Assembly: GCF_016862215.1 (NCBI RefSeq)
Contig: NZ_BOMN01000122.1
Coordinates: 1-64,000 of the forward strand
Length of the DNA: 64,000 nt
Direction: 5' to 3'
From: Winogradskya humida
GTDB taxonomy: Bacteria > Actinomycetota > Actinomycetes > Mycobacteriales > Micromonosporaceae
This document shows positions 56-45,001 of this stretch, piece by piece (positions within the stretch are counted from its first letter, which is position 1; every line of letters starts with the position of its first letter). The notes under the pieces are model-generated. The model worked only from the letters and a program-made list of their open reading frames with translations. It was not told the DNA's origin and did not search any database. The translations under genes were made by a program, and so were the position numbers.

Positions 56-853
56 TCACCGGGAGGGCAGGCCCAGGCGTTCGAGGATTTCGCGGAGGCG
101 GTGGCGGCCGGCCATGGAGGCGGGGCCGGCGAGGCGGGTGAGAACGCGGTCGCTCCAGGTGCCGCGGAGGCCGAAGCGTTCGTTGTAGGCCGATAGTCTC
201 TTGTCGTACGCCTCGATGTGCGCGTCAGCGGCCGGGGCGTCGAACTGCTCGTGGTGCAGGACCGCGGCCTGCGGGAGGCGTGGCTTGACGTCGGCTTCTT
301 CCGTGGGGTCAGGGGTGCCGACGGCCAGCCCGAAGGTCGCCACCGTGCGCGGCGGCAGGCCGAGCTCCGCAGCGATCTCCTCGGGGTGGTTGCGGACCGC
401 GCCGACGAAGACCGAGCCCAGGCCGAGAGACTCCGCGGCAATAACCGCGTTCTGGGCGGCCAACGCAGTGTCGACGAAGCCGATGATGGTGGTTTCGAGG
501 TAGTCCGCGGCTTCGACCTGGGTTCCGGCGCGCTGGGCGAGGCGGTGGGCGCGGCCGAGGTCGGCGACCCAGATCAGGAACAGCGGGGCCTGGGCGACGA
601 AGGACTGGTTGCCGGCCAGCGCGGCCAGGCGGGCCTTGCGGGCGGGGTCCCGGACCGCCACCACGCTCCACGGTTGCAGGTTCGAGGACGTGGCCGCGGA
701 CTGGGCTGCGGCGATCAGCGCGGTGAGTTCGTCGTCGGTCACGTCGCGGGTGGTGAACTTGCGGACCGAACGGCGCTCGAGTTGCAGGCGCAGGACGTCG
801 TTGAGGACGCCGAGGGTGGCCAGCGGGTCGCCGTAGCGGGCGGCGGCGGGCAT
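56..853 (-). CDS. Nitroreductase-family FMN oxidoreductase
   Basis: A 265-residue NAD(P)H-dependent flavoprotein of the nitroreductase fold, closest in layout to NfsA/FRP-type enzymes. The N-terminal LERRSVRKFTTRDV segment is the usual FMN-phosphate binding start, followed by SSNLQPW, and FGLAVGTPD lies in the C-terminal half. It is the last gene of a 12-gene minus-strand operon and its ATG shares one base with the stop of the upstream monooxygenase, implying coupled translation. In that setting it could supply reduced FMN to the two-component monooxygenases, because the operon has no other obvious flavin reductase; this role is inference. The protein has two Met and no Cys. Positions 1-55 downstream of it show nothing I recognise. 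Confidence 0.85.
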   Translation of the reverse strand: MPAAARYGDPLATLGVLNDVLRLQLERRSVRKFTTRDVTDDELTALIAAAQSAATSSNLQPWSVVAVRDPARKARLAALAGNQSFVAQAPLFLIWVADLGRAHRLAQRAGTQVEAADYLETTIIGFVDTALAAQNAVIAAESLGLGSVFVGAVRNHPEEIAAELGLPPRTVATFGLAVGTPDPTEEADVKPRLPQAAVLHHEQFDAPAADAHIEAYDKRLSAYNERFGLRGTWSDRVLTRLAGPASMAGRHRLREILERLGLPSR

Positions 854-2181
854 CAGGCGGCCACCTCGAAAATGCCCTGACGGGCCGGAAGGCCGAGCCG
901 CCCGCGCAGGGTGGGGTGGGGGTATTCCTTCTGGAACAAGCCGTACTCCTGCAGGATCGGGACCACCAGGGTGGCGAAGTTCGGGAGGTCGACGGCGGTG
1001 TCGGCCGGCATGATCGTGAAGCCGTCAGCGGTTCCTGCCTCGAACCACGAGCGTAGGTCGTCGGCGACCTCCTGGGCAGAGCCGACCAGCAGGCGGTGAC
1101 CGGAGCCACCCGCGCCACGCTGGATCAGCTCGCGGGGCGTGCGGGGTGCGTCGGCGATCAGCGCGCGGGTGGAGACGCTGAAACCGGCGGAGAACGTGCT
1201 GCCGGGAACAAGATCCGGGAGGTCCGTGATGCTGATCGGGTCGTCCGGGCCGAAGGAACCAGGGGCCAGACCCAGGTTGGCCAGCAGGGACCCGGTGAGC
1301 GACTCGAGCGGCAGGGTGGCGTAGAGCTCCTGCTCACGGCGGCGGGCCTCAGAAGACGTCGCCGCGACGAGGACCACCACGCCGAGGGACACCTTCACGT
1401 CATCGGGGTGGCGGCCGGCGGCTGCGGCACGGTTGCGGATGTCGTCGCGGAAGGCCACCGCCTTGGCCTGGGTCTGGGCGACGGTGAAGACGACGTCGGC
1501 GTACTGTCCGGCCAGCGAGAGGCCGCCTTCGGAGCCGCCGGCCTGGACGATGACCGGGCGGCCCTGGGGTCCGGCGGGGACGGGGAGCGGGCCGGCGACG
1601 GAGAAGAACTCGCCGTCGTGGTCGACGCGGTGGATGCGGGACGGGTCGGCGTACTGTCCGGACTGTTTGTCGGCGACGATCGCGCCGGGATCCCAGCCGT
1701 CCCAGAGGCGGGTGACGACGTCGAGGAACTCGTGGGCGCGGCGGTAACGGGATTCCCTGTCGGGGTGGGTGGCGCGGCCGAAGTTGGCGGCTGCTGCGGG
1801 CGTACCCGTGGTCACGATGTTGACTGCTGCTCTGCCCTTGGTGACGTGGTCGAGGGCCTGGAAGCGGCGGGCGAGGTTGTAGGGCGAGTTGTAGGTCGTG
1901 GAGCTGGTGATGATCACGCCGAGGTTCGTGGTCGTGGCTGCCACGGCGCCGAGCAGGACCAGCGGGTCGAGGCCGGTGCCGGGGGCCTGTTCGATCTCGC
2001 CGCGCAGGGCGGGGCCGTCGCCCAGGAACACCGCGTCGATCTTCGCGTCCTCGGCGATGCGGGCGAGCCGCTGGAAGTGGTCGATGTCGAGATATGCGTA
2101 CGGGTCGACGTGCGGCAACCGCCACGCGTGCCGGAAGTGACCGGGCGTCATCAGCGACAGGTTCAGGTGGAATCCGGTCAT
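853..2181 (-). CDS. LLM-class flavin monooxygenase, NtaA/SnaA/DszA family
   Basis: A 442-residue FMNH2-dependent monooxygenase of the bacterial luciferase-like superfamily, in the nitrilotriacetate/DszA group. Members use reduced FMN and O2 to oxidise substrates, often breaking C-N or C-S bonds. Family marks in order are [61 protein letters not shown] and [16 protein letters not shown]. The start is the ATG at 2181 that forms an ATGA overlap with the previous gene; the open frame continues upstream but only over another gene. Full family length, three Met and no Cys. Context says sulfur or organonitrogen scavenging, but the substrate cannot be read from sequence. Confidence 0.9.
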
Positions 2182-3239
2182 GAGCGCACCCTCGAATCGG
2201 CGGGATGCCAGCCGAGCAGCGGCGCGAGGTCGCGGGCCCCGGCGGCGAGCAGCCGGCGGTGTTCGGCGAAGTCGGGCACCCCGGGGACGAAACTGATCAG
2301 CAGGTCGGTGATCTCGCGCAGCGCGGGATCGGTGGCGAGTTCGGCGGCCAGGGTCTCGGCGGGGCCGAGCAGCGCGTGGTCGGCCGCGAGGTATTCCTCG
2401 ACGGTCAGGTCCGCGACGTCGCGGCGGGCGGACAGCCAGCTCTGCCAGCGCCGCGCGCCCGGGGTGACGAGCCGGGCCGCCTCGGCCAGGTCCGGGTGCG
2501 GGTAGACGGCCCGTGACACCTGAACCCGGGGTTCGTGGTCGGGGTCGGTCCAGGCCGCGCGGTAGGCGTCGATCCATTCCGCCTGCTGCCTCTGGGCGTC
2601 GCGGACGGTGCCGCCGCGCCATCCGGTCGCGCGGGAGAGCTGCAGGCCGTCCCCGGCCCGGCCCGCTGCGGCTGCGGCTGCGTGGGCGAGGTCCGGGTCG
2701 CCGGTGGTGGCCTGCCAGAGCCTCTCCCGTACGCCCGAGGCCGGCGGATGCAGCACCTCCCCCAAACTGTTCAGCGCCGCCCCGCCGAGCACGTCGTGCA
2801 GCCGCGCCACCGACTCGTCGAAGAGCCGGTGCCGGTCGCCGAGGTCCTTCCCGAACGCCTCCCACGCGCCCGGGAACGGCCCCGATCCCACGCCGAGCTC
2901 GAGCCGCCCACCGCTGAGCGCGTCGAGCGTGGTCGCGTCCTCGGCGACCTTGAGGGGGTCTTCGAGCGGCAGCACGAGCACGCCGGTGCCGAGCCCGATC
3001 CGGTTGGTGTGCTGGGCGATCGCGGCGAGCAGCACCAGCGGCGCCGACACGTGCTCGCGGCCCTGCCGGAAGTGCCGCTGGATGACCCAGCCCGAGTCGT
3101 AACCCAGGTTCTCGGCGATGACGAACAGATCGATCGCTTCCTGGTACGCGCGGGCGGGCGGCAGATCCGCGTCGAGGTGCAGCAGGAATCCCAGCCGGAA
3201 GGGCCGCCCGTCGCGCAGTCCGGCTCCGATGGGGGCCAT
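2178..3239 (-). CDS. LLM-class luciferase-like monooxygenase
   Basis: A 353-residue luciferase-like flavoprotein of a different subgroup from its neighbours. Visible marks are [12 protein letters not shown] near the N-terminus, [18 protein letters not shown], the flavin-proximal [11 protein letters not shown] and a C-terminal half rich in Ala and Arg. It probably acts with reduced flavin supplied by a partner reductase. It overlaps the downstream monooxygenase by four bases (ATGA) and touches the upstream aldo/keto reductase by one base. Apart from the initiator Met the protein contains no Met and no Cys, which is remarkable for 353 residues. The substrate is unknown. Confidence 0.85.
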
Positions 3240-4222
3240 CAGAGCCGCAACCCCGTTCCGTGTACGCCGTACTTGTCGACAACCGCCAGCTCGTCATCGG
3301 TCAGCGGCGCGAAGTCGAGCGCCTTGACGTTGTGGTCGAGTTGCTCCGTCGAACTGGCACCGATCAGCGCGGAGGTCACCTCGGGGCGGCGCAGCACCCA
3401 CTGCAGGGCGAGCTGGGCGAGTGACTGGCCCCGTTGCGCGGCGAGCTTGTTGAGCCCGGTGATCCGCTCGCGATAGGTCTCGTCGATCACGTCCGGTGAC
3501 AGGAACGCGCTGTTCTGCGCCCGTGCCCCGGCGGGGACGCCGTCGAGGTACTTGTCGGTGAGCAGCCCCTGCGCGAGCGGCGAGTAGACGACCAGCCCGA
3601 ACCCGTCCTCCTCGGCGACCTCCAGGAGCCCGGTCAGCTCGGGACGCCGGTCGAAGATCGAGTAGCGGGGCTGGTGGACCAGCAGCGGAACCCCGGCGCG
3701 GCGCAGCAGCCCGGCGATCTCGTGCGCGCGGTCGGCCGGGTAGTTGGAGATGCCGGCGTAGAGCGCCTTGCCCTGCTGCACGGCGGCGGCCAGCGCGCTG
3801 ACCGTCTCGTCGAGGGGCGTGGTGAGGTCGGGGCTGTGGCTGTAGAAGATGTCGACGTAGTCGGTGCCCAGGTCGCGCAGGCTCTGGTCGAGCGAGCCCA
3901 GCAGCGATTTGCGGGACGCGCCGCGCTGGTAGGGCCCGGGGCCGATCGGGTTGCCGGCCTTGGTTGACAGGATCAGTTCGTCACGGTGCGGGGCGAGGTC
4001 GCGTTTGAGCACGGTCCCGAAGAACTGCTGGGCGGCGCGGTGCGGCGGGCCGTACCTGTCCGCATTGTCGAAGTGGGTGATGCCCAGGTCGAACGCGTGC
4101 AGCACGATCTCCCGCTGGGTCTCGTACGCGTAGTCGGTGCCGAACTTCTGCCACAGCCCGAACGAGAACGCGGACAGGTCGAGGCCGGAGCGCCCGGCGC
4201 GGCGGTAGGGCAACAGGGTCAT
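3239..4222 (-). CDS. Aldo/keto reductase (YghZ/MgrA-like)
   Basis: A 327-residue NADPH-dependent aldo/keto reductase with a TIM-barrel, resembling the L-glyceraldehyde-3-phosphate reductase or Kv-beta-like branch. The catalytic tetrad is visible as the Asp and Tyr of [10 protein letters not shown], the Lys of LSTKAGNP and the His of FYSHSPD. It could reduce aldehydes released when sulfonates or sulfones are oxidatively cleaved by the neighbouring monooxygenases; that is inference from context. Its ATG lies at the end of a 29-bp tandem duplication that now separates it from the upstream reductase. The protein has only the initiator Met and no Cys. Confidence 0.88.
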
Positions 4223-4276
4223 CGGGGCAGGCCTTTCAGGCGCAGGGTCATCGGGGCAGGCCTTTCAGGCGCAGGG
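4214..4276. repeat. 29-bp perfect tandem duplication across a stop/start junction
   Basis: Two adjacent copies of a 29-bp unit start at 4214 and 4243, with five further matching bases. Each copy carries an ATGA. In the first (upstream on the minus strand) the TGA ends the 4248-5282 reductase; in the second the ATG starts the 3239-4222 reductase. Without the duplication the two genes would overlap by ATGA like most others in this operon. Confidence 0.95.
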
Positions 4277-5282
4277 CGGACGGCTGCAGGGACGGGGTGT
4301 CGCGGCCGGTGTCACGTTCGAGGAAGTGGGTGCCGGGGTCGACGATCTCGTCGATGCGGTCCAGCACCTCAGGATCAAGATCAACTGCCGAGGCCTTGAG
4401 GTACGCGTCCAGGTGGCTCTGCGTACGCGGCCCGATGATGACGCTGCTGATCGCGGGGTGGTTCAACGCGAACGCCACCGCCAGCTCGACCAGCGTCAGC
4501 CCGTGTTCGTCCGCGAGCGTCGCCAGGGCGTCGGCGGCGGCGAGTTTGCGCTGGTTGCGGTCGAGCGTGATGTCGAAGCGCCCGGGGATCAGCTCGGCGC
4601 GTGCGGACGCGGGCTGCTCGGCGCCGACCCGGTAGCCCCCGGAGAGCCAGCCGGCGGCGAGCGGGCCGTAACTGAGCACGCCCACGCCGTACTTGCGAAC
4701 CACCGGGAAGACTTCCCGTTCGGCGCTACGGACGAGCAGCGAATACGGCAGCTGCTCGGTGTGCGGCGCGGTGAGCCCGTGCTTCTCGGCCAGCCACTGC
4801 GCCTCGACGAGCTGATGCGCAGGGAACACCGACGTGCCGTAGTAGCGGATCTTCCCCTGCCGGATCAGGTCGTCGAGCGTCCGCAGTGTCTCCAGCAGGT
4901 CGGTGCGCGGGTCGGGCCGGTGCGCCTGGTAGAGGTCGAGATGGTCGGTGCCGAGCCGGCGCAGGCTGTCCTCGACGGCGCGGACGATCCAGGCCCGCGA
5001 GTTCCCGGCGTGGCGGGGGTTGTCGCCGACCTGACCGTGGAACTTCGTGGCCAGGAAGACGTCGTCCCGGCGCCCCGCGAGCGCTTTGCCGACGATCTGT
5101 TCCGAGACGCCCTGCGCGTACACGTCGGCGGTGTCCACGGCCGTGAGGCCGGCGTCGAGGGCGGCCTGGATGATCCGGATGCTCTCGGCTTCCTCCTGGT
5201 GCCGGCCGAAGTTCATCGTGCCGAGCGTCAACGGGCTGATCAGGAGTCCCGTGCGCCCGAGAACGCGGTCTGCTGTGCTCAT
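4248..5282 (-). CDS. Aldo/keto reductase
   Basis: A 344-residue aldo/keto reductase, a distant paralogue of the next gene. Tetrad residues appear in VDTADVYAQG (Asp, Tyr), LATKFHG (Lys) and YQAHRPDPR (His); SVIIGPRTQSHLD is the usual C-terminal NADP-phosphate binding stretch. I chose the ATG at 5282 (MSTADRVLG) over the longer frame because the upstream extension is unlike the family and would run into the preceding gene. The last codons (ALRLKGLPR) are encoded in the first copy of the 29-bp duplication. Two Met and no Cys. Probably reduces a carbonyl product of the monooxygenases; substrate unknown. Confidence 0.87.
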   Translation of the reverse strand: MSTADRVLGRTGLLISPLTLGTMNFGRHQEEAESIRIIQAALDAGLTAVDTADVYAQGVSEQIVGKALAGRRDDVFLATKFHGQVGDNPRHAGNSRAWIVRAVEDSLRRLGTDHLDLYQAHRPDPRTDLLETLRTLDDLIRQGKIRYYGTSVFPAHQLVEAQWLAEKHGLTAPHTEQLPYSLLVRSAEREVFPVVRKYGVGVLSYGPLAAGWLSGGYRVGAEQPASARAELIPGRFDITLDRNQRKLAAADALATLADEHGLTLVELAVAFALNHPAISSVIIGPRTQSHLDAYLKASAVDLDPEVLDRIDEIVDPGTHFLERDTGRDTPSLQPSALRLKGLPR

Positions 5283-5290
5283 GGTTCCCC

Positions 5291-6480
5291 TCAGAAGAGT
5301 CCGGTCGTGGGCGGTTCCTCGGCGGTCAGGTGATAGGCACCCGCCACCGCGGCCTTCCACTGCCGGGGGTTGTGGTTGGCGACGGTGCGGGCGTTGCGCC
5401 AGTGCCGGTCGAAGCCGAGATCACGGCCGGTCGCTGAGCCCCCGCCGACGTCGAAGAGCAGTTCCGCGGCGTGCAGCGCGGACTCGATGGCGGTCACGCC
5501 GGTCTGGGCGACGGTCACCGCCGCTCGGGCGCCGGCTTCGCGGGCTGCCGGGCCTTGTTTCTCGCGTACGGCCTGAAGTTCCTCCGCCGCGAGCAGCACG
5601 ACTGAGCGCGCGGCGTGGGCGTGCACGGCGATCCGGCCTACGGTCTCCCGCACGTACGGGTCCTGCACGCTGGTCGCCGCCGTACTGTGCTTGATCGGCC
5701 GGGCCCGCTCCCGCGCGAACACCACCGCATCGTCGAGCGCCGCCGCGGCGATCCCCGCCTCGATCGCCGCGAGATACAACTGGGCGAACGACCCGAGCCA
5801 CGGGCTGTCCAGCCGCGACGTGTCCCGAACGGTCACCTCGTCGGCACCGACCCGCACGTTCACGAGCCGGGTGGTGCCGCTGGCGGTGAGCCGCTGCCCG
5901 ACGGCGTCGAAGTCGTCGAGACGCTGCACCCCGGCCCGGTCCACCGGCACGGTGAAGCTCAGCAGCGTGCCGTCCTCGTCGGTGGCTGTACCGGAGAACC
6001 AGTTCGCGTAGAGGCCCCCGGTCGAGTAGTACTTCTCGCCGTTCACCAGGTACCCGTTCTCCTCACGCCGGATGGTCGTGTGGACGGAACCGCTCGCGCC
6101 GCCGGACCGCTCGTTGCCGGTGCCCGCGAAGAGATCCCCGGCGCGCAGCCGGTGCAGGGTCGTCGCGCGGTGGGGCAGGTCCGGGCGGGACGCGACCTGG
6201 TTGGCGGTCAGGAAGCTGCTGCGCAACGCCTGCGCCACGTTGGAGTCCGCGCGCCCGATCGCGATGATCAGGTCGAACACGTCCCGCAGTCTTCCCCCGG
6301 CGCCGCCGTCGCGGGCGGAGATCCCGGTCAGCGTGATCCGCTGCTCGGCAAGCGCCCGCACGTCCTCGAACGCGTAGGTCCGGGTCCGGTCCCGCTCCGC
6401 CGCGCCCGTCGCCAGCCGGCGCAGGATCGGCTCGACACCGCCCCGGATGTCCTCGACGCTCAGCGTCACCAGCTCGGCGG

Positions 6481-6484
<4 letters not shown>
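5291..6484 (-). CDS. SfnB-family (DszC-like) acyl-CoA dehydrogenase-fold monooxygenase
   Basis: A 397-residue member of the acyl-CoA dehydrogenase fold that matches the SfnB/DszC branch linked to sulfur acquisition rather than fatty-acid oxidation. Segments supporting this are GNERSGGASGS, VNGEKYYSTGGLYANW, QRLTASGTTRLVNVRV and the C-terminal FDRHWRNARTVANHNP, a hallmark of the DszC/SfnB group. These enzymes use reduced flavin and O2 on organosulfur compounds (DszC on dibenzothiophene; SfnB in dimethyl sulfone use). It overlaps the downstream-translated neighbour at 6481 by ATGA and is 8 bases from the next gene. The whole protein has only the initiator Met and no Cys. Confidence 0.88.
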
Positions 6485-7541
<1,057 letters not shown>

Positions 7542-7545
<4 letters not shown>

Positions 7546-8780
7546 GCGGGGATCACCTCTGACTCGGGGAGCAAAGCGGGGACAGCGGGCAGCCCGAGAC
7601 CGAGGTGGTCGCGCAGGGTGGTGCCCTCATACTCGGTGCGGAACAGGCCGCGGCGCTGCAGGACGGGGATGACGTGGTCGGCGAAGTCGTCGAAGCCCGA
7701 CGGCAGGACGTCCGGCATCACGTTGAAGCCGTCCGCCGCGCCGGCGCGGAACCATTGCTCGATGTCGTCGGCGATCTGTTCGGGGGTGCCGGTCACGATG
7801 CGGTGCCCACCGCCGCCGGAGAGTTTCTTGAGCAGCTGCCCGAGCGTCGGGTTGTCCCGGTCGATGATCGCCTTGACGACGCGGTAGAACGTCTGCGAGC
7901 CACCGGCCTGGTCGGGTTCGACGAGCAACGAAGCGGGAATCGGTTCGTCGTCGGACAGCCCGTCGAGGGAGAAGCCGAGTTGACCGGCCAGGCGGCTCCG
8001 GGCGTACGCATCGGGTAACAGGTTGTCGAGCAGTTCCCTGCGCGCCCGGGCCTCGGCCTCGGTGCTGCCCACGACGGTCGAGAGGCCGGGCAGGACCACG
8101 AGTTCGTCGGGGTTGCGGCCGAACGCGGCGGCGCCGTCGCGCAGCTCGGTGCGGAATGCGCGGGCGTGGGCGAGGTCCTGGTCGGCGGAGAAGATGACCT
8201 CGCCGACGCGGGAGGCCAGGCGTTTGCCGTCCGTGGAGCCGCCGGCCTGGACCACGACCGGGCGGCCCTGCGGGGAGAGCAGGCGGGTGCGGGCGGCCCA
8301 CGCGGCGATGACCTGGGTGGCGACGTCGGCGGCGCGTTCGTAGCGGGTGGCGTGTTCGAGTTCGCCGCGGCGGCCGAAGTTGCGGGCGGCGACCGGGCCG
8401 GCGGTGGTGACGACGTTCCAGCCGAAGCGGCCGCCGCTGACGTGGTCGAGGTCGCCGAGGCGGCGGGCGAGCTCGACCGGGTCGTTGTAGGTGGAGGAGA
8501 GCGTACCGATCAGGCCGATCTTCTCGGTCTGCGCGGCGATGCGGGCCAGGACCGTGGTGGGTTCGAGGTTGTTGGCCGTGCGGTGCTTGACGCTCGGGTC
8601 GAGCGACGGGCCGTCGGCCAGGAAGACGGCGTCCAGCTTCGCCTGCTCGGCCTTCTTCGCGATCGACGTGTAGTGGTCGATCGTGTAGCTCGCGGTGCCG
8701 TCGGTGCCCGGGAAGCGCCACGAGCCCCCGAACACGCCCGCGTTGAGAATGTTGACGTTGATGTGCAGCTGACGGGTCAT
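7542..8780 (-). CDS. LLM-class flavin monooxygenase, DszA/NtaA family, internally shortened
   Basis: A 412-residue FMNH2-dependent monooxygenase with FLADGPSLDP, SSTYNDPVELARR, GRFGWNVVTT, ARNFGRRGELEHATRY and PQGRPVVVQAGGSTDG. Compared with the paralogue at 853-2181 it has a clean in-frame loss of about 36 residues between IAAW and SPQGRP. This removes the segment that normally carries DGEFF-V-GPL, which helps shape the active-site insertion. ATG at 8780 overlaps the ATPase gene by ATGA; the longer open frame upstream belongs to other genes. Two Met, no Cys. Probably still folds as a barrel, but substrate range may differ from full-length relatives. Confidence 0.85.
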
Positions 8781-10369
8781 CGCGTACTCCTCAGGTCCCG
8801 GCCGGGGATCGCGTCGAGCAACCGCCGGGTGTAGTCGTGCTGGGGTGCGTGGAAGACCTCCTCGACCGGGCCGGTCTCGACCACGGCACCGTCCTTCATC
8901 ACCGTGACGTCGTCGGCGATCAGCCGGACGACGCCGAGGTCGTGGGTCACGAAGACGTAGCTGAGCCCGGACTCGGCCTGCAGGTCGACGAGCAGCTGCA
9001 GGATCTGCGCCTGCACCGACACGTCGAGCGCGCTGACCGCCTCGTCGAGCACCAGGATCCCGGGGTTCAGCGCGAGGGCCCGGGCGATCGCCACCCGCTG
9101 GCGCTGACCGCCGGAGAGCTGGCCGGGCAGGCGGTTCAGGTAGCTCTCGTCGAGGGCGACCGCTTTCAGCAGTTCCGCTGCGCGGCCTTCGATGGGTACG
9201 CCGAACGCCCGCAACGGTTCCTCGACGAGCCGCCGGACGGTGAAGCGCGGGTCGAGCGACGTGTAGGGGTTCTGGAACACGAACTGCAGGTCGCGGCGGA
9301 TCGTACGGAGCTCGCGGCGGTTCAGGGCGGTCAGCTCGGTGGCGCCCACGTGCACGGTGCCGCTGTCCGCCGTGGTGAAACCGGCCAGGATCCCCGCGAG
9401 GGTGGACTTGCCGGCGCCGGACTCGCCGACGATGGCGTGCGTGGTTCCCTTGCGTACCACCAGGTCCGCGGTTTTCAGGGCGTGGACGTGTTTGTAGGAC
9501 TTGGACAGCGCGCGCGCTTCGAGGGCGACCAGGCCGGTGGCGCTGGTGTTGTCGCGCAGGCGGCCGTGGTGCTGGGCCGGGGAGGCGGCGAGCAGGCGGC
9601 GGGTGTAGTCGTCGGTGGGCTGGTCCAGGATCTGCCGGACCGGGCCGTGCTCGACGATCTCGCCGGCGCGCATGACCAGGATCCGGTCGGCGCGTTCCAG
9701 GGCGACACCCAGGTCGTGGGTCACCAGCAGGATCCCGATGCCGAGGCGTTCGCGCAGCCCGGCCAGGTGGTCGAGGATGACCTTCTGGACGGTGACGTCG
9801 AGGGCGCTGGTCGGCTCGTCCGCCACGATGATCTTCGGGTGACCGGCGAGCGCGATGGCGATCAGGGCGCGCTGTTTCATGCCGCCGCTGAGCTCGTGCG
9901 GGAACTGCTGGAACACCCGCTCGGCGTCCTGCAGGCCCGCGGTGCGCAGGCTCTCCAGCGCAGCCGCGCGGTAGTCGGCCGCAGTGCCGGGGCGGGGTGC
10001 GTTGAACCGGACGGCCTCGATGACCTGGTGGCCGATGCGTTTGGTCGGGTTCAAGGAGGTGTTCGGGTCCTGGGGGATGAAACCGACGTAGTTTCCGCGT
10101 ACGCGTGCCATGCGCTTGTCGTTCCACCCGGTGACCTCGACGCCCGAATAGGCGATCGAGCCGGACCTGCGCCGGGCGACGGGTGGGAGAAGCCCGAGCG
10201 CGCCCTGGACCAGCGTCGTCTTGCCGGAGCCGGATTCCCCCACCAGCGCGACCAGCTCGCCCGGTTCGACGTGCAGGCTCACACCGCGGACCGCGGGTGT
10301 CCACCGCCGACGCCCGGCCGGGTAGTCGATGGCGAGATCGGTGATCCGGAGCAGGGGGTCGTGGGTCAC
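8777..10369 (-). CDS. Dipeptide/organosulfur-type ABC transporter, fused double ATPase
   Basis: A 530-residue protein with two complete ABC ATPase domains in one chain, equivalent to DppD plus DppF. The first half has Walker A GESGSGKTT, signature LSGGMKQR and Walker B IIVADEPTSALD. The second has GESGAGKST, LSGGQRQR and ILVLDEAVSALD, so the second Walker B ends DEA rather than DEP. Each half carries the DYTRRLLA-type C-terminal motif of Opp/Dpp ATPases. The start is the GTG at 10369, which overlaps the permease stop as GTGA; the longer frame is out of family. It powers the permease pair encoded just upstream. Confidence 0.9.
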   Translation of the reverse strand: MTHDPLLRITDLAIDYPAGRRRWTPAVRGVSLHVEPGELVALVGESGSGKTTLVQGALGLLPPVARRRSGSIAYSGVEVTGWNDKRMARVRGNYVGFIPQDPNTSLNPTKRIGHQVIEAVRFNAPRPGTAADYRAAALESLRTAGLQDAERVFQQFPHELSGGMKQRALIAIALAGHPKIIVADEPTSALDVTVQKVILDHLAGLRERLGIGILLVTHDLGVALERADRILVMRAGEIVEHGPVRQILDQPTDDYTRRLLAASPAQHHGRLRDNTSATGLVALEARALSKSYKHVHALKTADLVVRKGTTHAIVGESGAGKSTLAGILAGFTTADSGTVHVGATELTALNRRELRTIRRDLQFVFQNPYTSLDPRFTVRRLVEEPLRAFGVPIEGRAAELLKAVALDESYLNRLPGQLSGGQRQRVAIARALALNPGILVLDEAVSALDVSVQAQILQLLVDLQAESGLSYVFVTHDLGVVRLIADDVTVMKDGAVVETGPVEEVFHAPQHDYTRRLLDAIPGRDLRSTR

Positions 10370-11175
10370 CGGCTGTGCTCCTTCCGGAACGAGGTGCTGA
10401 TGCGGTGGGTGGCGATGACCACGACCGCGAGGGCGACCCCGGGCAGGATCGAGGCCCAGGGATGTACGGCGACGTAGTCCCGGCCCTCCGCGACGAGCAG
10501 TCCCCATTCGGGTTGCGGGGGCGGGGCGCCGTAGCCGAGGAAGCCGAGCGACGCGACGGCGAGGACCGCGGTGCCCACCTCGAGGGCGGCCAGCGCGACC
10601 ACGGAGCTGAGCGAGTTCGGGACGACGTGGCGGAGCATGACGCCGATCCGGCCGACGCCGAGGCCGTACGCCGCCCGTACGTAGTCCTGATGCACGACCG
10701 ACAGCACTTGCGCCCGCATCACCCGTGCGAACGACGCGATCGACGAGACGCCGACGGCCAGGGCGATGTTGTTGGTGGAGTAGCCGAGCACCGACACGAC
10801 CACCATCGCGAGCAGCAGGCTGGGGATCGCCAGGAACACGTCCACCACCCGCATGATCGCGGTGTCGGCGATGCCCCCGCTGAACCCGGCGATCAGCCCG
10901 ACGGCGGTGCCGATGCCGAACGCGATGACCACGGCCAGCAGCGTGGCCGTCAGCGTGGTGTGCGCGCCGTAGACGCTGCGGGCGAACAGGTCGCGGCCCA
11001 GCCGGTCGGTGCCGAACCAGTGCTCGGCGCTCGGTGGCGCGAAGCTCGCGGCGGTGTCCCCGGCGTACGGGCTGTACGACGTGAACAACTGCGGGGCGAC
11101 GGCCCAGCCGATGACGACGAGCACCACGAGCCACGCTAGGAGCAGGACCGGTTGCTGCAGCCGGCGGGTGATCAT
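10366..11175 (-). CDS. DppC-like ABC transporter permease
   Basis: A 269-residue inner-membrane permease with an N-terminal membrane anchor, HWFGTDRLGRDLFARSVYGA (the DppC-type N-domain motif), about six hydrophobic segments and the EAA-like loop ARVMRAQ to RIGVMLRHVVPNS. It pairs with the 11172-12119 permease and the double ATPase to import a peptide-sized or organosulfur ligand captured by the 12124-13839 binding protein. The ATG at 11175 gives an ATGA overlap with the previous gene; a longer open frame exists but overlaps coding sequence. Five Met, no Cys. Confidence 0.9.
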   Translation of the reverse strand: MITRRLQQPVLLLAWLVVLVVIGWAVAPQLFTSYSPYAGDTAASFAPPSAEHWFGTDRLGRDLFARSVYGAHTTLTATLLAVVIAFGIGTAVGLIAGFSGGIADTAIMRVVDVFLAIPSLLLAMVVVSVLGYSTNNIALAVGVSSIASFARVMRAQVLSVVHQDYVRAAYGLGVGRIGVMLRHVVPNSLSSVVALAALEVGTAVLAVASLGFLGYGAPPPQPEWGLLVAEGRDYVAVHPWASILPGVALAVVVIATHRISTSFRKEHSR

Positions 11176-12119
11176 TTCTGCGCCTCCACAACCGCGCGCA
11201 TCCGCGGATCCAGCAGGGGATATATCAGATCCACGAACAGATTGATGAGAGCGAAGCTGACCGCGACGAACACGACGATGCCCTGGACGAGGGGTACGTC
11301 GAGGGTGTTGATCGCGTTCTGGGTCAGCCGGCCGATGCCCTTGCGGGCGAACACCGTCTCGGTGATGACCGAGCCCGCGATCAGGTTGCCGAACGTGATG
11401 CCCGCGATCGTCAGCGCCGGCAGGCTGGCGTTGCGCAGCACGTCGCGCAGGATGATGCCGCCGCGGGTGGCGCCCTTCGCCCAGCTCGTCGTGACGTACC
11501 CGGAATGGAACTCGGTCGCGAAGCTGCGGACCAGCAGTTGCGCGATCGGCCCGGCCACCGGGATGGCGAGGGTGATCAGCGGCAGCACGATGCTGCGTGG
11601 CCCGTCGTCGCCGAACGCCGGAAACCAGCCCAGCTTGAACGAGAACACCTGCAGGATCAGGATGCCGGAGAGGAACACCGGCACCGACACCGCGCCCGAC
11701 GGCAGGGCCTCCACCACGTTGCGCACCCAGGCGCGCCGGGTCGAGGTGGCGACGAGCGCGATGCCGACGGCGGCGAGCACCGCCAGCACCAGCGCTCCCG
11801 CCGACAGCAGCAGGGTTTCGGGCAGTACGTCGAGGATCGCCGAGGCGACCGGCCGGCCGGACTGCACCGAGCTGCCGAAGTCGCCGGTCAGCGCGTGGCC
11901 GAGGCGGTCGGCGTACTGCAGGAGCACGGGCTTGTTGAAGCCGTAGTTGTCCGCGACCTGCTCGCGCACCTCCGGCGGCACGGTGTTGAGCTCGGTGGGA
12001 TCGAAGAGCAGGTCCACCGGGTTCGCCGGGAGCACGAAGAGCAGGACGAACGTGAGGGTGAACGCGGCCCACACCACGAACGCGGCCCGGCCGGTCTTCA
12101 GCGCGACATACCGCAGCAC
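11172..12119 (-). CDS. DppB-like ABC transporter permease
   Basis: A 315-residue DppB-type permease: an N-terminal transmembrane helix, a periplasmic loop containing LLQYADRLGHALTGDFG, then hydrophobic segments with LPALTIAGITFGNLIAGSV and the terminal LIYPLLDPRMR typical of DppB/GsiC. It starts at a GTG (12119), four bases after the stop of the binding-protein gene. Two Met and no Cys, low even for a polytopic membrane protein. Forms the membrane channel with the adjacent DppC-like subunit. Confidence 0.9.
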   Translation of the reverse strand: MLRYVALKTGRAAFVVWAAFTLTFVLLFVLPANPVDLLFDPTELNTVPPEVREQVADNYGFNKPVLLQYADRLGHALTGDFGSSVQSGRPVASAILDVLPETLLLSAGALVLAVLAAVGIALVATSTRRAWVRNVVEALPSGAVSVPVFLSGILILQVFSFKLGWFPAFGDDGPRSIVLPLITLAIPVAGPIAQLLVRSFATEFHSGYVTTSWAKGATRGGIILRDVLRNASLPALTIAGITFGNLIAGSVITETVFARKGIGRLTQNAINTLDVPLVQGIVVFVAVSFALINLFVDLIYPLLDPRMRAVVEAQK

Positions 12120-12123
12120 GATG

Positions 12124-13839
12124 TTACTTCCCGTCGCTCTTCCAGGCGTCCACGAAGTGGTTCCGGGACTGGGCGTCGAAGATGATGCCGTGGACGTAGT
12201 CCGCGTGCGCGATCACCTGTGCCGGGTTGTAGATCGGGCTGACCAGGGCGTACTTCTCGAGCAGTAGATCCTGGGCGGCCTTGGCTGCGGCCTTGCGCTC
12301 GGCCGGGTCGAGGGTGAGCTCGAGCTTGCCCAGCGTCGCCGAGACCTCGGCCACGTCGATCCCGGTGGAGTCGGCGGTCAGGAACGAGGCATTACCGAGC
12401 TGCGGACCGTACGCGAGATTGAGCACTGCCGGATCGTTGCGTGAGCGGTTCGCGGCGGTGATGTTCCAGTCGGTCTTCGCCTTGGCCACCTGTGCCGTGT
12501 AGTCCGGGATCGGGACCACGGAGAGCTGCAGGTCGATGCCGATCTTCGTGAGGTCCTGCTGGACCGACTCGTACGCCGGCTTGTTGACCACGAGGTTGCT
12601 GATGCCGAGCAGCTTGACCGTCAGCCGCTTGCCGTCCTTGGCGCGGATGCCGTCCGGGCCGGGCACCCAGCCGGCGGCGTCGAGCAGCGCCTTGGCCTGC
12701 TCCGGGTCGTACTTCAGTACCGAGCCGCTGTAGTCGGCGTATCCGGAGACCGACGGCGCGAGCACCGAGGTCGCCACGGAGTAGGAGTCGGTGAGCACGG
12801 TCTTGGTGATCGCGTCGCGGTCCCAGCCGAGCTGGATCGCCTTGCGGACGGCGATGTCGTTGGTGGGGAACAGCTGCGAGTTGAAGTTGAAGAAGATGGA
12901 CGTGCCGGAGACGCCGCGGCTGATGATCGTAAAACCCTTGTCGGCCAGGGGCTTCTCGTCGGTGGTGCCGACGTCGAGGGTGGCGTCGATCGTGCCGGAC
13001 ACCAGCGATCCGGTGCGGACGCTGGCCTCGGGGATGGTGTTGAACACGATCCGGTCCAGGTAGGCCTCACCCTGGTGCTTGATCGAGGCGGGCGCCCAGT
13101 GGTAGCCGGCCCGCTTCACCAGGACGGTCTTGACCTGCTGTTCCCAGGACTCGTAGACGAACGGCCCGGTGCCGATGATCTTCTTCGGGTCGGCGCGCTC
13201 GGCCGAGCTCAGCTTCAGCGTCGACAGGGACAGGAAGCCGGGCTGCGCGTTCGCGGTGAACGAGGACGCCTGCAGGAAACTGGCCAGGGGCTTGGCGAAC
13301 CGTACGACCGCCGTGTACTGGTCCGGCGTATCGGTGCCGAGATACCCCGGGAGCAGCGACGCGCCGTTCGGGTTGATGCCCAGCTTCTGGTCGCCGTGCA
13401 CGTACTGGTCGAAGTTCGCCTTGACGACCGCCGCGTCGAACGGCGTGCCGTCACTGAACGTCACGTCCTTGCGCAGGTGGAACGTGAACTGCGTCAGCTC
13501 CTTGTTGTACTCCCAGGACTGCGCGAGCCACGGCGTGATCTCGCCGGTGTCCGGGTCCTGCCAGGTCAGCTTGTCGGTGATGTTGTTGCCGATCAGCGAT
13601 TCGGCGTAGTTGGTGCCCCACTGCGGGTCGGGGCTGCGCTGGTAGTCGATGAGCGCGAACTGCAGCGTGCCGCCGCGGACGGGTGTCCCGTCGTCCGAGG
13701 CCTCCGCGCTGCTGCCGCCTCGTCCCACGGCGAGCCCGATGCCCGCGACCAGGAGGACGGCAACCGCGGCGCCCGCTATCCAGGGCCACTTGCGACGGGT
13801 GGGTGCGCTCTGCTCGATGGAGCTTCGAAGGTCTGACAT
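12124..13839 (-). CDS. Family-5 ABC substrate-binding protein with a membrane anchor instead of a lipobox
   Basis: A 571-residue extracytoplasmic solute-binding protein of the peptide/nickel (SBP_bac_5) family: GGTLQFALIDYQRSPDPQ, FHLRKDVTFSDGTPFDAAVVKANFD (shown here by position, roughly residues 120-145) and RKAIQLGWDRDAI. The N-terminus is charged, then has a single hydrophobic helix WIAGAAVAVLLVAGIGLAVG, with no Cys after it. It is therefore probably tethered by a signal anchor or released, not lipid-modified like the other binding proteins here. I prefer ATG 13839, which has a GAGAG ribosome site, to the in-frame GTG 21 bases upstream. The mature protein has no Met beyond the start and no Cys. 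First gene of operon A. Confidence 0.88.
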   Translation of the reverse strand: MSDLRSSIEQSAPTRRKWPWIAGAAVAVLLVAGIGLAVGRGGSSAEASDDGTPVRGGTLQFALIDYQRSPDPQWGTNYAESLIGNNITDKLTWQDPDTGEITPWLAQSWEYNKELTQFTFHLRKDVTFSDGTPFDAAVVKANFDQYVHGDQKLGINPNGASLLPGYLGTDTPDQYTAVVRFAKPLASFLQASSFTANAQPGFLSLSTLKLSSAERADPKKIIGTGPFVYESWEQQVKTVLVKRAGYHWAPASIKHQGEAYLDRIVFNTIPEASVRTGSLVSGTIDATLDVGTTDEKPLADKGFTIISRGVSGTSIFFNFNSQLFPTNDIAVRKAIQLGWDRDAITKTVLTDSYSVATSVLAPSVSGYADYSGSVLKYDPEQAKALLDAAGWVPGPDGIRAKDGKRLTVKLLGISNLVVNKPAYESVQQDLTKIGIDLQLSVVPIPDYTAQVAKAKTDWNITAANRSRNDPAVLNLAYGPQLGNASFLTADSTGIDVAEVSATLGKLELTLDPAERKAAAKAAQDLLLEKYALVSPIYNPAQVIAHADYVHGIIFDAQSRNHFVDAWKSDGK

Positions 13840-13908: not shown

Positions 13909-13925
13909 GCTATATAGCCGATAGG
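13909..13925. promoter_or_regulatory. Candidate sulfur-regulon operator (variant GCTA-N9-TAGG)
   Basis: GCTATATAGCCGATAGG lies in the 99-bp divergent region between operon A and the 13939 monooxygenase. It matches seven of the eight fixed positions of the CCTA-N9-TAGG element found at three other promoters in the window. The 12-bp perfect palindrome GGCTATATAGCC at 13908-13919 overlaps it. Binding factor unknown. Confidence 0.5.
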
Positions 13926-13938: not shown

Positions 13939-15015
13939 ATGAGTGACGAAGCTGCAAACGAGTTCCTCTGGTACATCCCGAACCAGGTCGAGCCGGGCCA
14001 TCGCGGGGACGACGTGGTCACGGATCACAACACCCTGGACACCCTCACCGGCCACGCCCTCGCGCTGGAGAAACACGGGTGGGGCGGGGCGCTGATCGGG
14101 ACCGGCTGGGGGCGGCCCGACACGTTCACCGTCGCCACCGCGCTGGCCGCCCGGACGACGACGTTCCAGCCGCTGATCGCGGTGCGGCCCGGGTACTGGC
14201 GGCCGGCGAACTTCGCGTCGGCGGCGGCGAGCCTCGATCACCTCAGCGGCGGGCGCGTACTGATCAATATCGTGTCGGGGAAGGACAATCTCGCGGCGTA
14301 TGGCGACAGCGAGGGTGACCAGGCCCACCGCTACGCGCGTACGAAGGAGTTCCTCCAGCTCGTCCGCAGATTGTGGACCGAGGAGAACGTCACGTATCAC
14401 GGCGAGCACTTCGGGGTCACCGGCTCGACCGTGGTCCCCCGGCCGGTCGTGCGCGGCGCGCGCAGGCATCCGCGGCTCTACTTCGGCGGGGCTTCCGAGG
14501 CGGCTGAGCGGGTGGCTGCTGCCGAGGCTGACGTTCAGCTGTTCTGGGGTGAGCCGCTGGACGGCGTACGCGAAAGGATCGAAAGGCTGACAGCGCTCAG
14601 CGCCGAACTCGGCCGGGAGCATGCCCCGCTGGAGTTCGGGCTGCGGATCACCACGGTGGTCCGGGAGACGTCCGAGCAGGCCTGGTCCGATGCCGAGGCG
14701 AAGGTCGCGGAGATGGCGAAGGGCGTCGGCCGGACCCCGCCCGACCAGGCCCGGCGCGCCGCGGTCGGCCAGCAGCGGCTGCTCGACCTGACATCCCGCG
14801 GCGAGGTGCTGGACGACAACCTCTACACGGCGCCCGGCAAGTTCGGGGGCGGGGGCGCCGGCACCACGTGGCTGGTCGGCTCGGCCAAGGAGGTGGCATC
14901 GTCGCTACGGCGCTACCAGGAGCTGGGCATCACGCACTTCATCCTCTCCGACACGCCTTACCTGCCGGAGATCGAGCGCCAGGGCGAGCAGCTGTTGCCG
15001 CTATTGAGGGGCTGA
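13939..15015 (+). CDS. ssuD: SsuD-like alkanesulfonate monooxygenase (LLM class)
   Basis: A 358-residue FMNH2-dependent monooxygenase of the SsuD/MsuD type, which releases sulfite from alkanesulfonates. SsuD-like blocks in order are EFLWYIPNQ, a TGWGRPDTFTVATALAA stretch, RVLINIVSGKD, RLYFGGASEAAERVAA, VQLFWGEPLDGVRERIE, AVGQQRLLDL and GGGGAGTTWLVGSAKEV. The ATG is preceded by AGGG at a normal distance. It is divergent from operon A, sharing an operator-like site, and its last 15 bases overlap the convergent gene at 15001. Two Met and no Cys. Reduced FMN probably comes from the SsuE-like reductase at 37520 or the nitroreductase at 56. Confidence 0.88.
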   Translation: MSDEAANEFLWYIPNQVEPGHRGDDVVTDHNTLDTLTGHALALEKHGWGGALIGTGWGRPDTFTVATALAARTTTFQPLIAVRPGYWRPANFASAAASLDHLSGGRVLINIVSGKDNLAAYGDSEGDQAHRYARTKEFLQLVRRLWTEENVTYHGEHFGVTGSTVVPRPVVRGARRHPRLYFGGASEAAERVAAAEADVQLFWGEPLDGVRERIERLTALSAELGREHAPLEFGLRITTVVRETSEQAWSDAEAKVAEMAKGVGRTPPDQARRAAVGQQRLLDLTSRGEVLDDNLYTAPGKFGGGGAGTTWLVGSAKEVASSLRRYQELGITHFILSDTPYLPEIERQGEQLLPLLRG

Positions 15016-33086: not shown

Positions 33087-33182
33087 TCGCGGGCGTCCGC
33101 ATACCGATCTCACCCATCGCTGTGCTGCTGCGCGCCTGCGCCATTATCGGCACCATCGTGCGCTGCGATGAATGGGGGAACC

Positions 33183-33930: not shown

Positions 33931-33938
<8 letters not shown>
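33183..33938 (+). CDS. Fe(II)/2-oxoglutarate-dependent oxygenase (HalD/BesD-like, HxD type)
   Basis: About 251 residues. The core holds GWHWDDYSFGVIYVAEVP with a His145-Trp-Asp147 metal pair, a distal His in TTLHRVHPV (His212) and an Arg about ten residues on in RRTIVNMAF for 2-oxoglutarate. The layout resembles the small soluble amino-acid hydroxylase/halogenase group (BesD/HalD), but Asp in place of the halogenase Gly predicts hydroxylation. I prefer GTG 33183, preceded by GGGGGA, to ATG 33168, which has no ribosome site. Overlaps argG by 8 bases, so the oxidised product is probably linked to the ArgG reaction. Confidence 0.75.
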
Positions 33939-35138
<1,200 letters not shown>

Positions 35139-38174: not shown

Positions 38175-38191
38175 CCTATGGAATCTATAGG
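38175..38191. promoter_or_regulatory. CCTA-N9-TAGG candidate operator upstream of the DUF1684/ABC operon
   Basis: CCTATGGAATCTATAGG, arms CCTAT/ATAGG around seven bases, ending nine bases before the ATG at 38201. It should block or steer transcription of operon 38201-43696. Confidence 0.62.
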
Positions 38192-43752: not shown

Positions 43753-43769
43753 CCTACTAGTTTGGTAGG
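43753..43769. promoter_or_regulatory. CCTA-N9-TAGG candidate operator upstream of the 43808 monooxygenase
   Basis: CCTACTAGTTTGGTAGG, exact pattern, 38 bases upstream of the ATG and just downstream of the shared -35-like element, so it should overlap the core promoter. Confidence 0.62.
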
Positions 43770-43807: not shown

Positions 43808-45001
43808 ATGACGTCCTTCGATCCGACGATCCCGCAGACCGCAGCCCCGGACGTGGAGTTCATCAGCCTCTCGCACCTGAACCCGTCCACCGAGCTCAAC
43901 CCGGTCCCGTCCCGCGGCATCGACCTGCCGTACTTCCGCAAGTACGTGCAGTCGCTCGAAGACGGCGGCTACGACTACACCCTGCTGCCCTACGGCTCGG
44001 GCAGCGCCGACTCGTTCGTCACGGCGAGCGCCGTGGGCGCGCTCACCGAGCGCATCAAGCCGATCGTCGCGCTGCGCCCCAACACCACGCTCCCGACCGT
44101 CGGCGCGCAGAAGCTCGCCACGCTCGACCAGCTGACCGAGGGCCGCGCGGTCGTCCACCTCATCTCCGGCGGCAGCGACGTCGAGCAGGCCCGCCAGGGC
44201 GACTACCTGCCGAAGAACAAGCGCTACGCCCGCACCTCGGAATACATCGACATCCTGCGCAGGTCGTGGACCGAGCCGGCCCCGTTCGACCACGACGGCG
44301 AGTTCTACAAGTTCGACGGCTTCGGCCCCGGCTTCGCCCCCTACGAATCCCCCATCCCGATCTCCATCGGCGGCCAGTCCGACGAGGCGTTCGAGATCGG
44401 CGGCGCGAAGGCCGACATCTTCAGCTTCTGGGGCGAACCCCTCGACGACCTCCGCAGCGAGATCGACCGCGTCCACGGCATCGCCCGCGCCGCCGGCCGC
44501 ACCACGCTGCCCCGGATCTGGGTCACCTTCCGCCCGATCATCGCCAAGACCGACGAACTGGCCTGGCAGAAGGCCCACGAATACGTCGCGAAGGTCGCCG
44601 AGACCCACCGCAAGGCCCCCCGCCTCGGCGGCGCTGCCCCCCAGAACGTCGGCTCCCAGCGCGCCCTGAACTTCGCCGACCGCTCCGAACTCTACGACCG
44701 CGCCCTCTGGACCAAGACCGCCGCGGTAACCAACGCCGCCGGAGCCTCCACCGCCCTGGTCGGCTCCCCCGAAACAGTCGCCGCCGCCATCCTCGACTAC
44801 GTCGACCGCGGCGCCTCCCTGGTCTCGATCCGCGGCTACGACACCCTCACCGACGCCATCGACTACGGCAAGTACGTCCTCCCCCTGGTCCGCCAGGAGA
44901 TCGCCCACCGCAAGGCCACCGGCCAACGAGGCACCCTCCAGGCCGACCACCTCGGCAACCACGGCCCGGACTACGCCCGCTACGCCACCGCCCAGTCCTG
45001 A
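43808..45001 (+). CDS. SsuD-like LLM flavin monooxygenase
   Basis: A 397-residue FMNH2-dependent monooxygenase of the alkanesulfonate/dimethylsulfone group: VEFISLSHLNPST, ALRPNTTLPTVGAQKLATLD, RAVVHLISGGSDVEQ, NKRYARTSEYIDILRRSW, PISIGGQSDEAFEIGG, DIFSFWGEPLDDLRSEID and the C-terminal GASTALVGSPETVAA. A GAGAGGAA ribosome site precedes the ATG. It has its own operator-like promoter and a strong terminator, so it is probably monocistronic. No Met beyond the start and no Cys in 397 residues. Confidence 0.87.
   Translation: MTSFDPTIPQTAAPDVEFISLSHLNPSTELNPVPSRGIDLPYFRKYVQSLEDGGYDYTLLPYGSGSADSFVTASAVGALTERIKPIVALRPNTTLPTVGAQKLATLDQLTEGRAVVHLISGGSDVEQARQGDYLPKNKRYARTSEYIDILRRSWTEPAPFDHDGEFYKFDGFGPGFAPYESPIPISIGGQSDEAFEIGGAKADIFSFWGEPLDDLRSEIDRVHGIARAAGRTTLPRIWVTFRPIIAKTDELAWQKAHEYVAKVAETHRKAPRLGGAAPQNVGSQRALNFADRSELYDRALWTKTAAVTNAAGASTALVGSPETVAAAILDYVDRGASLVSIRGYDTLTDAIDYGKYVLPLVRQEIAHRKATGQRGTLQADHLGNHGPDYARYATAQS

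What the first reader, a model, noticed from the sequence alone, without database searches (positions are those of the whole stretch)
56..13839. An operon of proteins almost free of methionine and cysteine
Hand count over the 12 proteins of operon A (about 4,580 residues): one Cys, and 26 Met of which 12 are start codons. The SfnB-like enzyme (397 aa), one LLM enzyme (353 aa), one aldo/keto reductase (327 aa) and the binding protein (571 aa) have no Met beyond the start and no Cys. The nearby SsuD-like protein at 43808 (397 aa) is the same. Genes not tied to sulfur scavenging here, such as argG or the alcohol dehydrogenase, are not depleted. Sulfur-starvation proteins with low sulfur content are known, but depletion across a whole 12-gene unit including transporters is extreme. 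It suggests the operon is expressed heavily when sulfur is scarce.
Basis: partly seen in the sequence, partly recalled or inferred. Interest (0 to 1): 0.85.

Follow-up and report, generated by a model that had tools for sequence, protein, structure and literature searches.

The report
Sulfur-scavenging operon nearly free of sulfur
A twelve-gene bacterial operon that looks built to scavenge sulfur from organic compounds encodes proteins that themselves contain almost no sulfur, and its relatives keep it that way, as expected if it is made when sulfur runs out.

Summary
The 12 proteins of operon A hold 14 non-start Met and 1 Cys in 4,567 residues: 0.33%, against 2.05% for 544 sampled genes of the genome. 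No other amino acid departs beyond 0.82-1.22x. EF-Tu, EF-G, RpoB and sulfate-assimilation genes are not depleted. LLM and aldo/keto-reductase paralogues are mostly normal; the SfnB-like family is low nearly everywhere, so it is a weak control. Among same-genus orthologues, Met/Cys occurs in 10 of 1,622 variable columns, against 97 of 1,445 in control genes. The promoter has a one-mismatch CCTAT-N7-ATAGG site; exact sites in this genome all lie between genes, 11 of 16 beside binding-protein, LLM or sulfur-metabolism genes. Best explanation: an organosulfur import and C-S cleavage operon purged of sulfur because it is made during sulfur starvation. Sulfur sparing is already known (PMC8557817), so this is an unusually complete new member of a known kind. 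Expression and substrate are untested.

The parts
12124..13839 (-). SBP: family-5 substrate-binding protein (TIGR04028-like), 571 aa, 0 Met beyond start, 0 Cys; no lipobox Cys, hydrophobic N-terminal segment instead
11172..12119 (-). DppB/NikB-type permease, 315 aa, 1 Met
10366..11175 (-). DppC/NikC-type permease, 269 aa, 4 Met, all invariant in the orthologues aligned
8777..10369 (-). fused DppD-DppF ATPase, 530 aa, 4 Met, all invariant in the orthologues aligned
7542..8780 (-). NtaA/DmoA-family LLM monooxygenase, 412 aa, 1 Met
   Evidence: TIGR03860 391.8 bits, cutoff 279.7
6481..7545 (-). diverged NtaA-like LLM, 354 aa, 1 Cys (the only Cys of the operon); no Pfam match
   Evidence: TIGR03860 102.9 bits, below cutoff
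5291..6484 (-). SfnB/DszC-like flavin monooxygenase of acyl-CoA dehydrogenase fold, 397 aa, no Met/Cys
4248..5282 (-). aldo/keto reductase 2, 344 aa, 1 Met
3239..4222 (-). aldo/keto reductase 1, 327 aa, no Met/Cys
2178..3239 (-). LLM monooxygenase, TIGR04027 (KPN_01858)-like, 353 aa, no Met/Cys
853..2181 (-). NtaA/DmoA-family LLM monooxygenase, 442 aa, 2 Met
56..853 (-). nitroreductase-family protein (flavin reductase role inferred), 265 aa, 1 Met; contig begins at window base 1
13939..15015 (+). divergent SsuD-like LLM monooxygenase, 358 aa, 1 Met (invariant in 6 sequences), shares the operon's promoter region
13909..13925 (-). promoter-region site CCTATCGGCTATATAGC, one mismatch from the CCTAT-N7-ATAGG palindrome
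38175..38191 (+). exact CCTATGGAATCTATAGG site upstream of the 38201-45001 transporter/SsuD run
43753..43769 (+). exact CCTACTAGTTTGGTAGG site 55 bp upstream of the SsuD-like gene
43808..45001 (+). SsuD-like LLM monooxygenase, 397 aa, no Met/Cys

Best explanation
Operon A is an organosulfur-scavenging unit of the genome's sulfur-limitation response. A membrane-anchored binding protein and a Dpp-type ABC importer bring in a sulfur compound; an SfnB/DszC-like monooxygenase and several FMN-dependent LLM monooxygenases, fed by the nitroreductase-family protein, oxidise the sulfur and break C-S bonds to release sulfite; the aldo/keto reductases deal with the carbonyl leftovers. Because these proteins are made when Met and Cys are scarce, selection has removed Met and Cys and keeps them from returning; most of the Met that remain sit at positions invariant among orthologues. 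DppC and the ATPase are purged least, which could reflect fewer copies or tighter constraint. Shown by computation: the depletion, its specificity for Met and Cys, its conservation among orthologues, its absence from EF-Tu/EF-G/RpoB and sulfate-assimilation genes, the promoter motif. Inferred: induction by sulfur limitation, substrate, reaction order, and selection for sulfur economy as the cause.
For: Depletion against the genome sample and against LLM and AKR paralogues (p = 0.0043 and 0.011). Only Cys (0.03x) and Met (0.23x) are depleted; the other 18 amino acids lie at 0.82-1.22x. Orthologous operons in seven same-genus genomes (one partial) are equally poor, mostly with normal genes beside them; Met/Cys in 10 of 1,622 variable columns against 97 of 1,445 in 16 control genes, Fisher p = 3.4e-22, and Met in 2 of 305 against 28 of 294 columns that vary among L/I/V/F; with the controls cut to 5 sequences it is still 72 of 1,297. 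Similar operons in named Nocardia, Gordonia, Rhodococcus and Streptosporangiaceae records are mostly low too. A second own cluster of like architecture (C13) is low, and so are LLMs and binding protein of a third (C147). EF-Tu 3.54%, EF-G 3.73%, RpoB 2.97%; CysD/CysN-like, CysH-like and sulfite-reductase-like genes 2.1-3.95% (names from sequence starts, position). Motif: 16 of 16 sites intergenic against 2 of 14 for the reversed pattern; median Met+Cys of the 19 downstream runs 1.03%; 11 of 16 beside binding-protein, LLM or sulfur-metabolism genes. Published sulfur sparing in Rhodococcus IGTS8 (PMC8557817, section 11 read).
Against: No expression or substrate data for this organism. SfnB-like relatives are low almost everywhere (0.00-1.07% in 22 relatives and the own paralogue), so part of the signal may be inherited; sequences at 2-3% exist (L262, L276, L304), so the fold tolerates Met/Cys. 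In 8 of 79 named loci the SfnB-like gene, and in 12 of 79 its gene run, is not lower than the rest of the locus. Proteins with no evident sulfur role can be low: a glycine-betaine-type binding protein in the window has 0 Met and 1 Cys, and several short ribosomal proteins have none. Of 8 residual Met tested (DppC, DppDF), Met is the majority residue in paralogues at only 2, so 'only indispensable Met remain' is not shown. The exact motif is absent from all 80 named loci, P. lichenicola's included; it is not more frequent than the reversed pattern (16 against 14); 5 of 16 sites have no clear sulfur link (C62, C88, C101:53046 with an AlkZ-like gene at 3.05%, C144, C147:22737); below the top few hits motif score does not predict low sulfur. 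Column counts ignore shared ancestry.
Confidence: 0.85

Rival explanations
1. Met and Cys are avoided because flavin monooxygenases leak peroxide and these side chains oxidise easily.
For: Six of the eight enzymes are flavin-type by family (four LLM or LLM-like, SfnB-like, nitroreductase).
Against: The binding protein and DppB, not flavin enzymes, are as poor; other oxidation-prone residues are not depleted to match (Trp 0.82x, Tyr 1.08x, His 1.13x); most other LLM-family proteins scored are normal.
Confidence: 0.05
2. The proteins are simply very abundant and the cell saves costly amino acids in any abundant protein.
For: SfnB-like, LLM and binding proteins could be abundant when induced (inference); several short ribosomal proteins have no Met/Cys.
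Against: EF-Tu, EF-G and RpoB of the same genome are at 3.0-3.7% and the two ribosomal-region stretches at 2.35 and 2.08% overall; Trp, also costly (recalled), falls only to 0.82x.
Confidence: 0.04
3. Ancestry, not present selection: the families were already poor in Met/Cys and the operon inherited this.
Against: LLM and AKR paralogues are mostly normal; among same-genus orthologues with mean identities of 59-86% per gene, variable columns still avoid Met/Cys.
Confidence: 0.05
4. A DNA-level effect (base composition or avoidance of ATG/TGC/TGT words).
For: ATG is also rarer out of frame (ratios 0.48-0.92).
Against: In-frame ratios are far lower (ATG 0.22, TGC/TGT 0.03) while out-of-frame TGC/TGT is 0.61-1.18; GC3 is ordinary (0.920 against 0.902).
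Confidence: 0.01

Closest known systems
Sulfur-sparing, sulfur-starvation proteins (Rhodococcus qingshengii IGTS8, PMC8557817; E. coli, yeast and cyanobacterial examples recalled)
   Same: Proteins that acquire organic sulfur have few or no Met/Cys, while CysK, sulfite reductase and APS reductase have more (section 11 of PMC8557817); the own genome shows a similar split.
   Different: Here a 12-gene unit including the importer is affected, conservation among orthologues was measured, and a promoter motif was found; expression was not measured.
TIGR04028/TIGR04027 (KPN_01854/KPN_01858) transporter and LLM operons
   Same: Binding protein and one LLM match these models best (349.6 and 218.1 bits); the one Erwinia plasmid operon of this kind examined is also low, 0.00-0.96% per gene.
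   Different: Both score below the curated cut-offs; the Erwinia operon has alkylhydroperoxidase and VOC genes in place of SfnB-like, NtaA-like and AKR genes.
sfn/dsz and ssu systems (SfnB, DszC, SfnG, SsuD)
   Same: Same enzyme types: SfnB/DszC-like and LLM monooxygenases with a nitroreductase-family protein.
   Different: SfnB-like protein 263.3 bits against a cut-off of 430.9; SsuD-like proteins far below the alkanesulfonate-monooxygenase cut-off; Dpp-type instead of Ssu-type importer.

Membership tests
Sulfur-sparing (S-poor, sulfur-starvation) proteins | Met+Cys content well below the proteome | tested here: met
   0.33% against 2.05% of 544 sampled genes
Sulfur-sparing (S-poor, sulfur-starvation) proteins | Low against same-family proteins: LLM and AKR | tested here: met
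   LLM p = 0.0043, AKR p = 0.011, operon genes against those outside the contig
Sulfur-sparing (S-poor, sulfur-starvation) proteins | Low against same-family proteins: binding protein and SfnB-like enzyme | tested here: inconclusive
   SBP p = 0.082; SfnB-like family low nearly everywhere; nitroreductase, permeases and ATPase had no full family control
Sulfur-sparing (S-poor, sulfur-starvation) proteins | Not explained by high expression alone | tested here: met
   EF-Tu, EF-G, RpoB not depleted, though several short ribosomal proteins have no Met/Cys
Sulfur-sparing (S-poor, sulfur-starvation) proteins | Induced by sulfur limitation | not testable with these tools
   Only indirect: promoter motif
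SfnB family (TIGR04022) | Score above 430.9 bits | tested here: not met
   263.3 bits
TIGR04028 binding protein | Score above 468.5 bits | tested here: not met
   349.6 bits
TIGR04027 LLM | Score above 412.9 bits | tested here: not met
   218.1 bits
NtaA/DmoA family (TIGR03860) | Score above 279.7 bits | tested here: met
   853-2160: 445.2; 7542-8720: 391.8 bits (stretches as given); 6481-7545 only 102.9, not met
Alkanesulfonate monooxygenase SsuD (TIGR03565) | Score above 518.2 bits | tested here: not met
   13939-15015: 233.5; 43808-45001: 185.5 bits

The most novel reading that the evidence does not exclude
The whole unit, membrane parts included, is held nearly sulfur-free by selection to the point that the binding protein has given up the lipobox cysteine of Gram-positive binding proteins and is held by an N-terminal membrane segment instead. 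The composition acts as a readable mark of a sulfur-limitation regulon driven from a CCTAT-N7-ATAGG operator, and it assigns the orphan TIGR04028/TIGR04027 systems, in Gammaproteobacteria too, to organosulfur acquisition.
Probability: 0.45. Interest if true: 0.7.

Novelty: new member of a known kind. Interest (0 to 1): 0.52.

Why it matters
It is a clean case of selection, as far as sequence can show it, acting on the elemental make-up of proteins, with family, expression and orthologue controls. It turns composition into a tool: gene clusters low in Met and Cys against family-matched controls point to sulfur-scavenging roles for uncharacterised transporters and monooxygenases, and the motif offers a testable regulon in a genus of soil actinomycetes. 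It does not by itself overturn existing ideas.

Tried and rejected

One search scored paralogues on the wrong strand for minus-strand matches; it is discarded and replaced. In one search, 54 of 74 LLM matches were scored: 4 short pieces were skipped and 16 were left out of my typed list, one of them (C92:117069, 0.83%) long enough and in a stretch I held; adding it moves the median from 1.66 to 1.65%. 30 of 50 AKR matches were scored. One search stopped after the control genes because of a script error; its control totals were carried by hand into. Controls had 7-8 sequences and operon genes 5-8, so one search repeated the controls with 5 to 7 sequences; the contrast held.

DNA-level and oxidation explanations were tested and disfavoured. 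A general link between motif score and low sulfur was not found below the strongest sites, and the exact motif was not found in 80 named relatives, so it is offered as a feature of this genus only. The number of motif sites (16) is not above the reversed control (14); the evidence is their placement. The palindrome was itself read from hits of a matrix made from operon A sites, so the later ranking of operon A with a matrix from the 16 exact sites is not fully independent; and several loci scanned had been chosen for their SfnB-like genes.

No structure prediction was run, since family models named the folds. The regulator and the substrate were not pursued.

Papers: PMC8557817 passages and section 11; PMC7661421 and PMC11852219 passages; other papers only search listings. 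Sulfur-poor starvation proteins in E. coli, yeast and cyanobacteria are recalled. One search on the names of the TIGR04028/04027 families listed one paper, on Klebsiella iron limitation, not opened. Searches showed no title or abstract reporting a whole S-depleted operon with its importer; this covers that open-licence library only and rests on listings.
Full report
Observation. The 12 minus-strand genes of operon A were recalled with a codon-usage gene caller and named with Pfam and NCBIfam. The genome sample (544 genes kept of 693) has 2.05% Met+Cys; the operon has 0.33%. Chance is excluded by three measures: Poisson P = 6.5e-24 and a minimum of 0.97% in 100,000 random 12-gene sets, and a minimum of 1.43% in 120 windows of consecutive genes.

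Specificity. Against the sample, Cys is at 0.03x and Met at 0.23x, and the other amino acids run from 0.82x (Trp) to 1.22x (Gln) (with the longer start of the binding protein). In-frame ATG and TGC/TGT are depleted far more than the same words in other frames, although out-of-frame ATG is also reduced (0.48-0.92x), and GC3 is ordinary. EF-Tu, EF-G and RpoB (named from sequence starts beside the S12 gene) carry 3.0-3.7%, and the two ribosomal-region stretches 2.35 and 2.08% overall, though several short ribosomal proteins have none. So high expression as such does not do this. Genes that look like sulfate activation, PAPS/APS reduction and sulfite reduction carry 2.1-3.95% (the two reductase-family matches, other names from sequence starts and position, recalled). 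The depletion therefore marks organosulfur scavenging rather than sulfur metabolism in general.

Family-matched controls. In the own genome, LLM matches (54 of 74 scored) have a median of 1.66%, AKR matches (30 of 50) 1.76%, family-5 binding proteins (17 of 17) 1.26%. The three scored LLM domains of operon A are at 0.00%, the AKRs at 0.00 and 0.34%, the binding protein at 0.00%. Of the 10 other LLM matches below 0.6%, two are in the window (13963, 43913), four in a C13 cluster at about 191-200 kb with a Dpp-type importer, two in a C147 cluster at about 16-19 kb, and two elsewhere (C125, C41). In the C147 cluster the permease (1.2%) and ATPase (3.2%) are not low. Exceptions of 2-3% show that the fold tolerates both residues. 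Over 79 named loci the gene run holding the SfnB-like gene has a median of 0.92% against 1.83% for the rest; it is lower in 67 of 79.

Conservation. Orthologous operons were found in seven same-genus genomes, one of them partial; one shares contig length and position with the record of Paractinoplanes lichenicola, so the window comes from an Actinoplanes/Paractinoplanes species (inferred). Poor operon genes mostly border on normal neighbours. Across 12 alignments of 5-8 sequences, Met/Cys appears in 10 of 1,622 variable columns and 11 of 2,823 invariant ones; in 16 control genes from another region of the same genomes the figures are 97 of 1,445 and 58 of 2,361. With controls cut to 7, 6 or 5 sequences they are 93 of 1,421, 85 of 1,386 and 72 of 1,297. 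Met is nearly absent where residues vary among L, I, V and F (2 of 305 against 28 of 294 columns). Of eight invariant Met tested in DppC and the ATPase, Met is also the majority residue in paralogues at two. Columns were counted as independent, so the p-values are optimistic.

Gradient. In operon A and its orthologues DppC keeps 4-5 Met and the ATPase 4, while the binding protein, AKR1, the SfnB-like enzyme and two LLMs keep none or one. Over loci collected around SfnB-like genes, medians were 0.45% for related enzymes (329), 0.74% for ATPase relatives (16), 1.10% for binding proteins (46), 1.36% for permeases (84) and 1.82% for other genes (974). Binding proteins are not lower than ATPases there, so a copy-number explanation is only a possibility.

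Binding protein. All seven sequences looked at (own plus six) lack a lipobox Cys and begin with a basic stretch followed by a hydrophobic segment, while 13 of the other 16 family-5 binding proteins of the genome have a Cys within the first 40 residues behind a signal-like stretch (read by eye). Anchoring by the segment is inferred.

Promoter motif. Upstream regions of operon A orthologues share an AT-rich element. A matrix from seven of these sites found similar sites, often upstream of S-poor clusters, from which the palindrome CCTAT-N7-ATAGG was read. In the own genome CCTAY-N7-RTAGG occurs 16 times, all intergenic, 15 with a gene start within 400 bp downstream; the reversed pattern occurs 14 times, 2 intergenic. 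The 19 downstream runs have a median of 1.03%. Eleven of 16 sites lie beside binding-protein, LLM or sulfur-metabolism genes (cysteine dioxygenase with rhodanese, sulfotransferase, molybdopterin oxidoreductase beside an LLM); whether the C14 and C21 binding proteins carry sulfur compounds is unknown. The other five (C62, C88, C101:53046, C144, C147:22737) have no clear link. A matrix from the 16 sites, none of them in operon A, puts the operon's divergent promoters, which share one site, 3rd and 4th of 1,114 other genes; first is the window's ssu-type ABC operon and second an LLM gene. Since the pattern grew out of operon A sites, this is a consistency check rather than an independent proof. 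Of six orthologues checked, four contain an exact match, one has a mismatch and one (checked upstream of its leading LLM gene) has none. The exact motif was not seen in 80 named loci.

Beyond the genus. Partial or rearranged relatives of the operon occur in Nocardia, Gordonia, Rhodococcus zopfii and a Streptosporangiaceae genome, mostly poor in Met/Cys, the last less so in its transporter (1.3-2.0%). One Erwinia plasmid operon with TIGR04028 and TIGR04027 genes has 0.00% in the binding protein, 0.35 and 0.96% in the permeases, 0.19% in the ATPase and 0.58% in the LLM; a sugar-binding-protein gene nearby is also low (0.57%). In a Variovorax plasmid the TIGR04027 gene (0.55%) lies near a CysB-family regulator gene. 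This suggests that these uncharacterised systems serve sulfur acquisition as well.

Literature. Rhodococcus qingshengii IGTS8 grown on dibenzothiophene shows sulfur sparing, with acquisition enzymes low in Met and Cys and sulfate-reduction enzymes less so (PMC8557817, section 11). SfnB, NtaA/DmoA-type and LLM genes or proteins rise in Gordonia strains on organic sulfur (passages of PMC11852219 and PMC7661421); their orthology to operon A was not tested. The principle is therefore known; the completeness over an importer operon, the orthologue test and the motif are what this case adds.

Noticed in passing
window 33168-33938: A Halogenase D (HalD, PF23169) family gene directly upstream of argG (33931-35142, named from its sequence start) and 35139-36059; possibly an amino-acid halogenase cluster.
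   Followed up: no
window 16894-18240: One gene matches both a 3-mercaptopyruvate sulfurtransferase model and an F420-dependent PPOX-class oxidoreductase model, apparently a fusion, near SsuA-like binding proteins.
   Followed up: no
window 29349-30278: A glycine-betaine-type binding protein with no Met beyond the start and one Cys, although no sulfur role is expected.
   Followed up: no
L122 9921-11141: In one orthologous operon an opposite-strand gene with 2.72% Met+Cys sits between two operon genes, standing out by composition.
   Followed up: no
L326 3941-12019: Erwinia plasmid operon TIGR04028/permeases/ATPase/TIGR04027/alkylhydroperoxidase/VOC, all low in Met/Cys.
   Followed up: partly
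L225 7504-9462: A sulfotransferase gene with a motif site upstream and a next gene at 0.35% Met+Cys.
   Followed up: partly
window 1: The contig begins at window base 1, 55 bases past the stop of the nitroreductase gene, so the operon may continue beyond it.
   Followed up: partly
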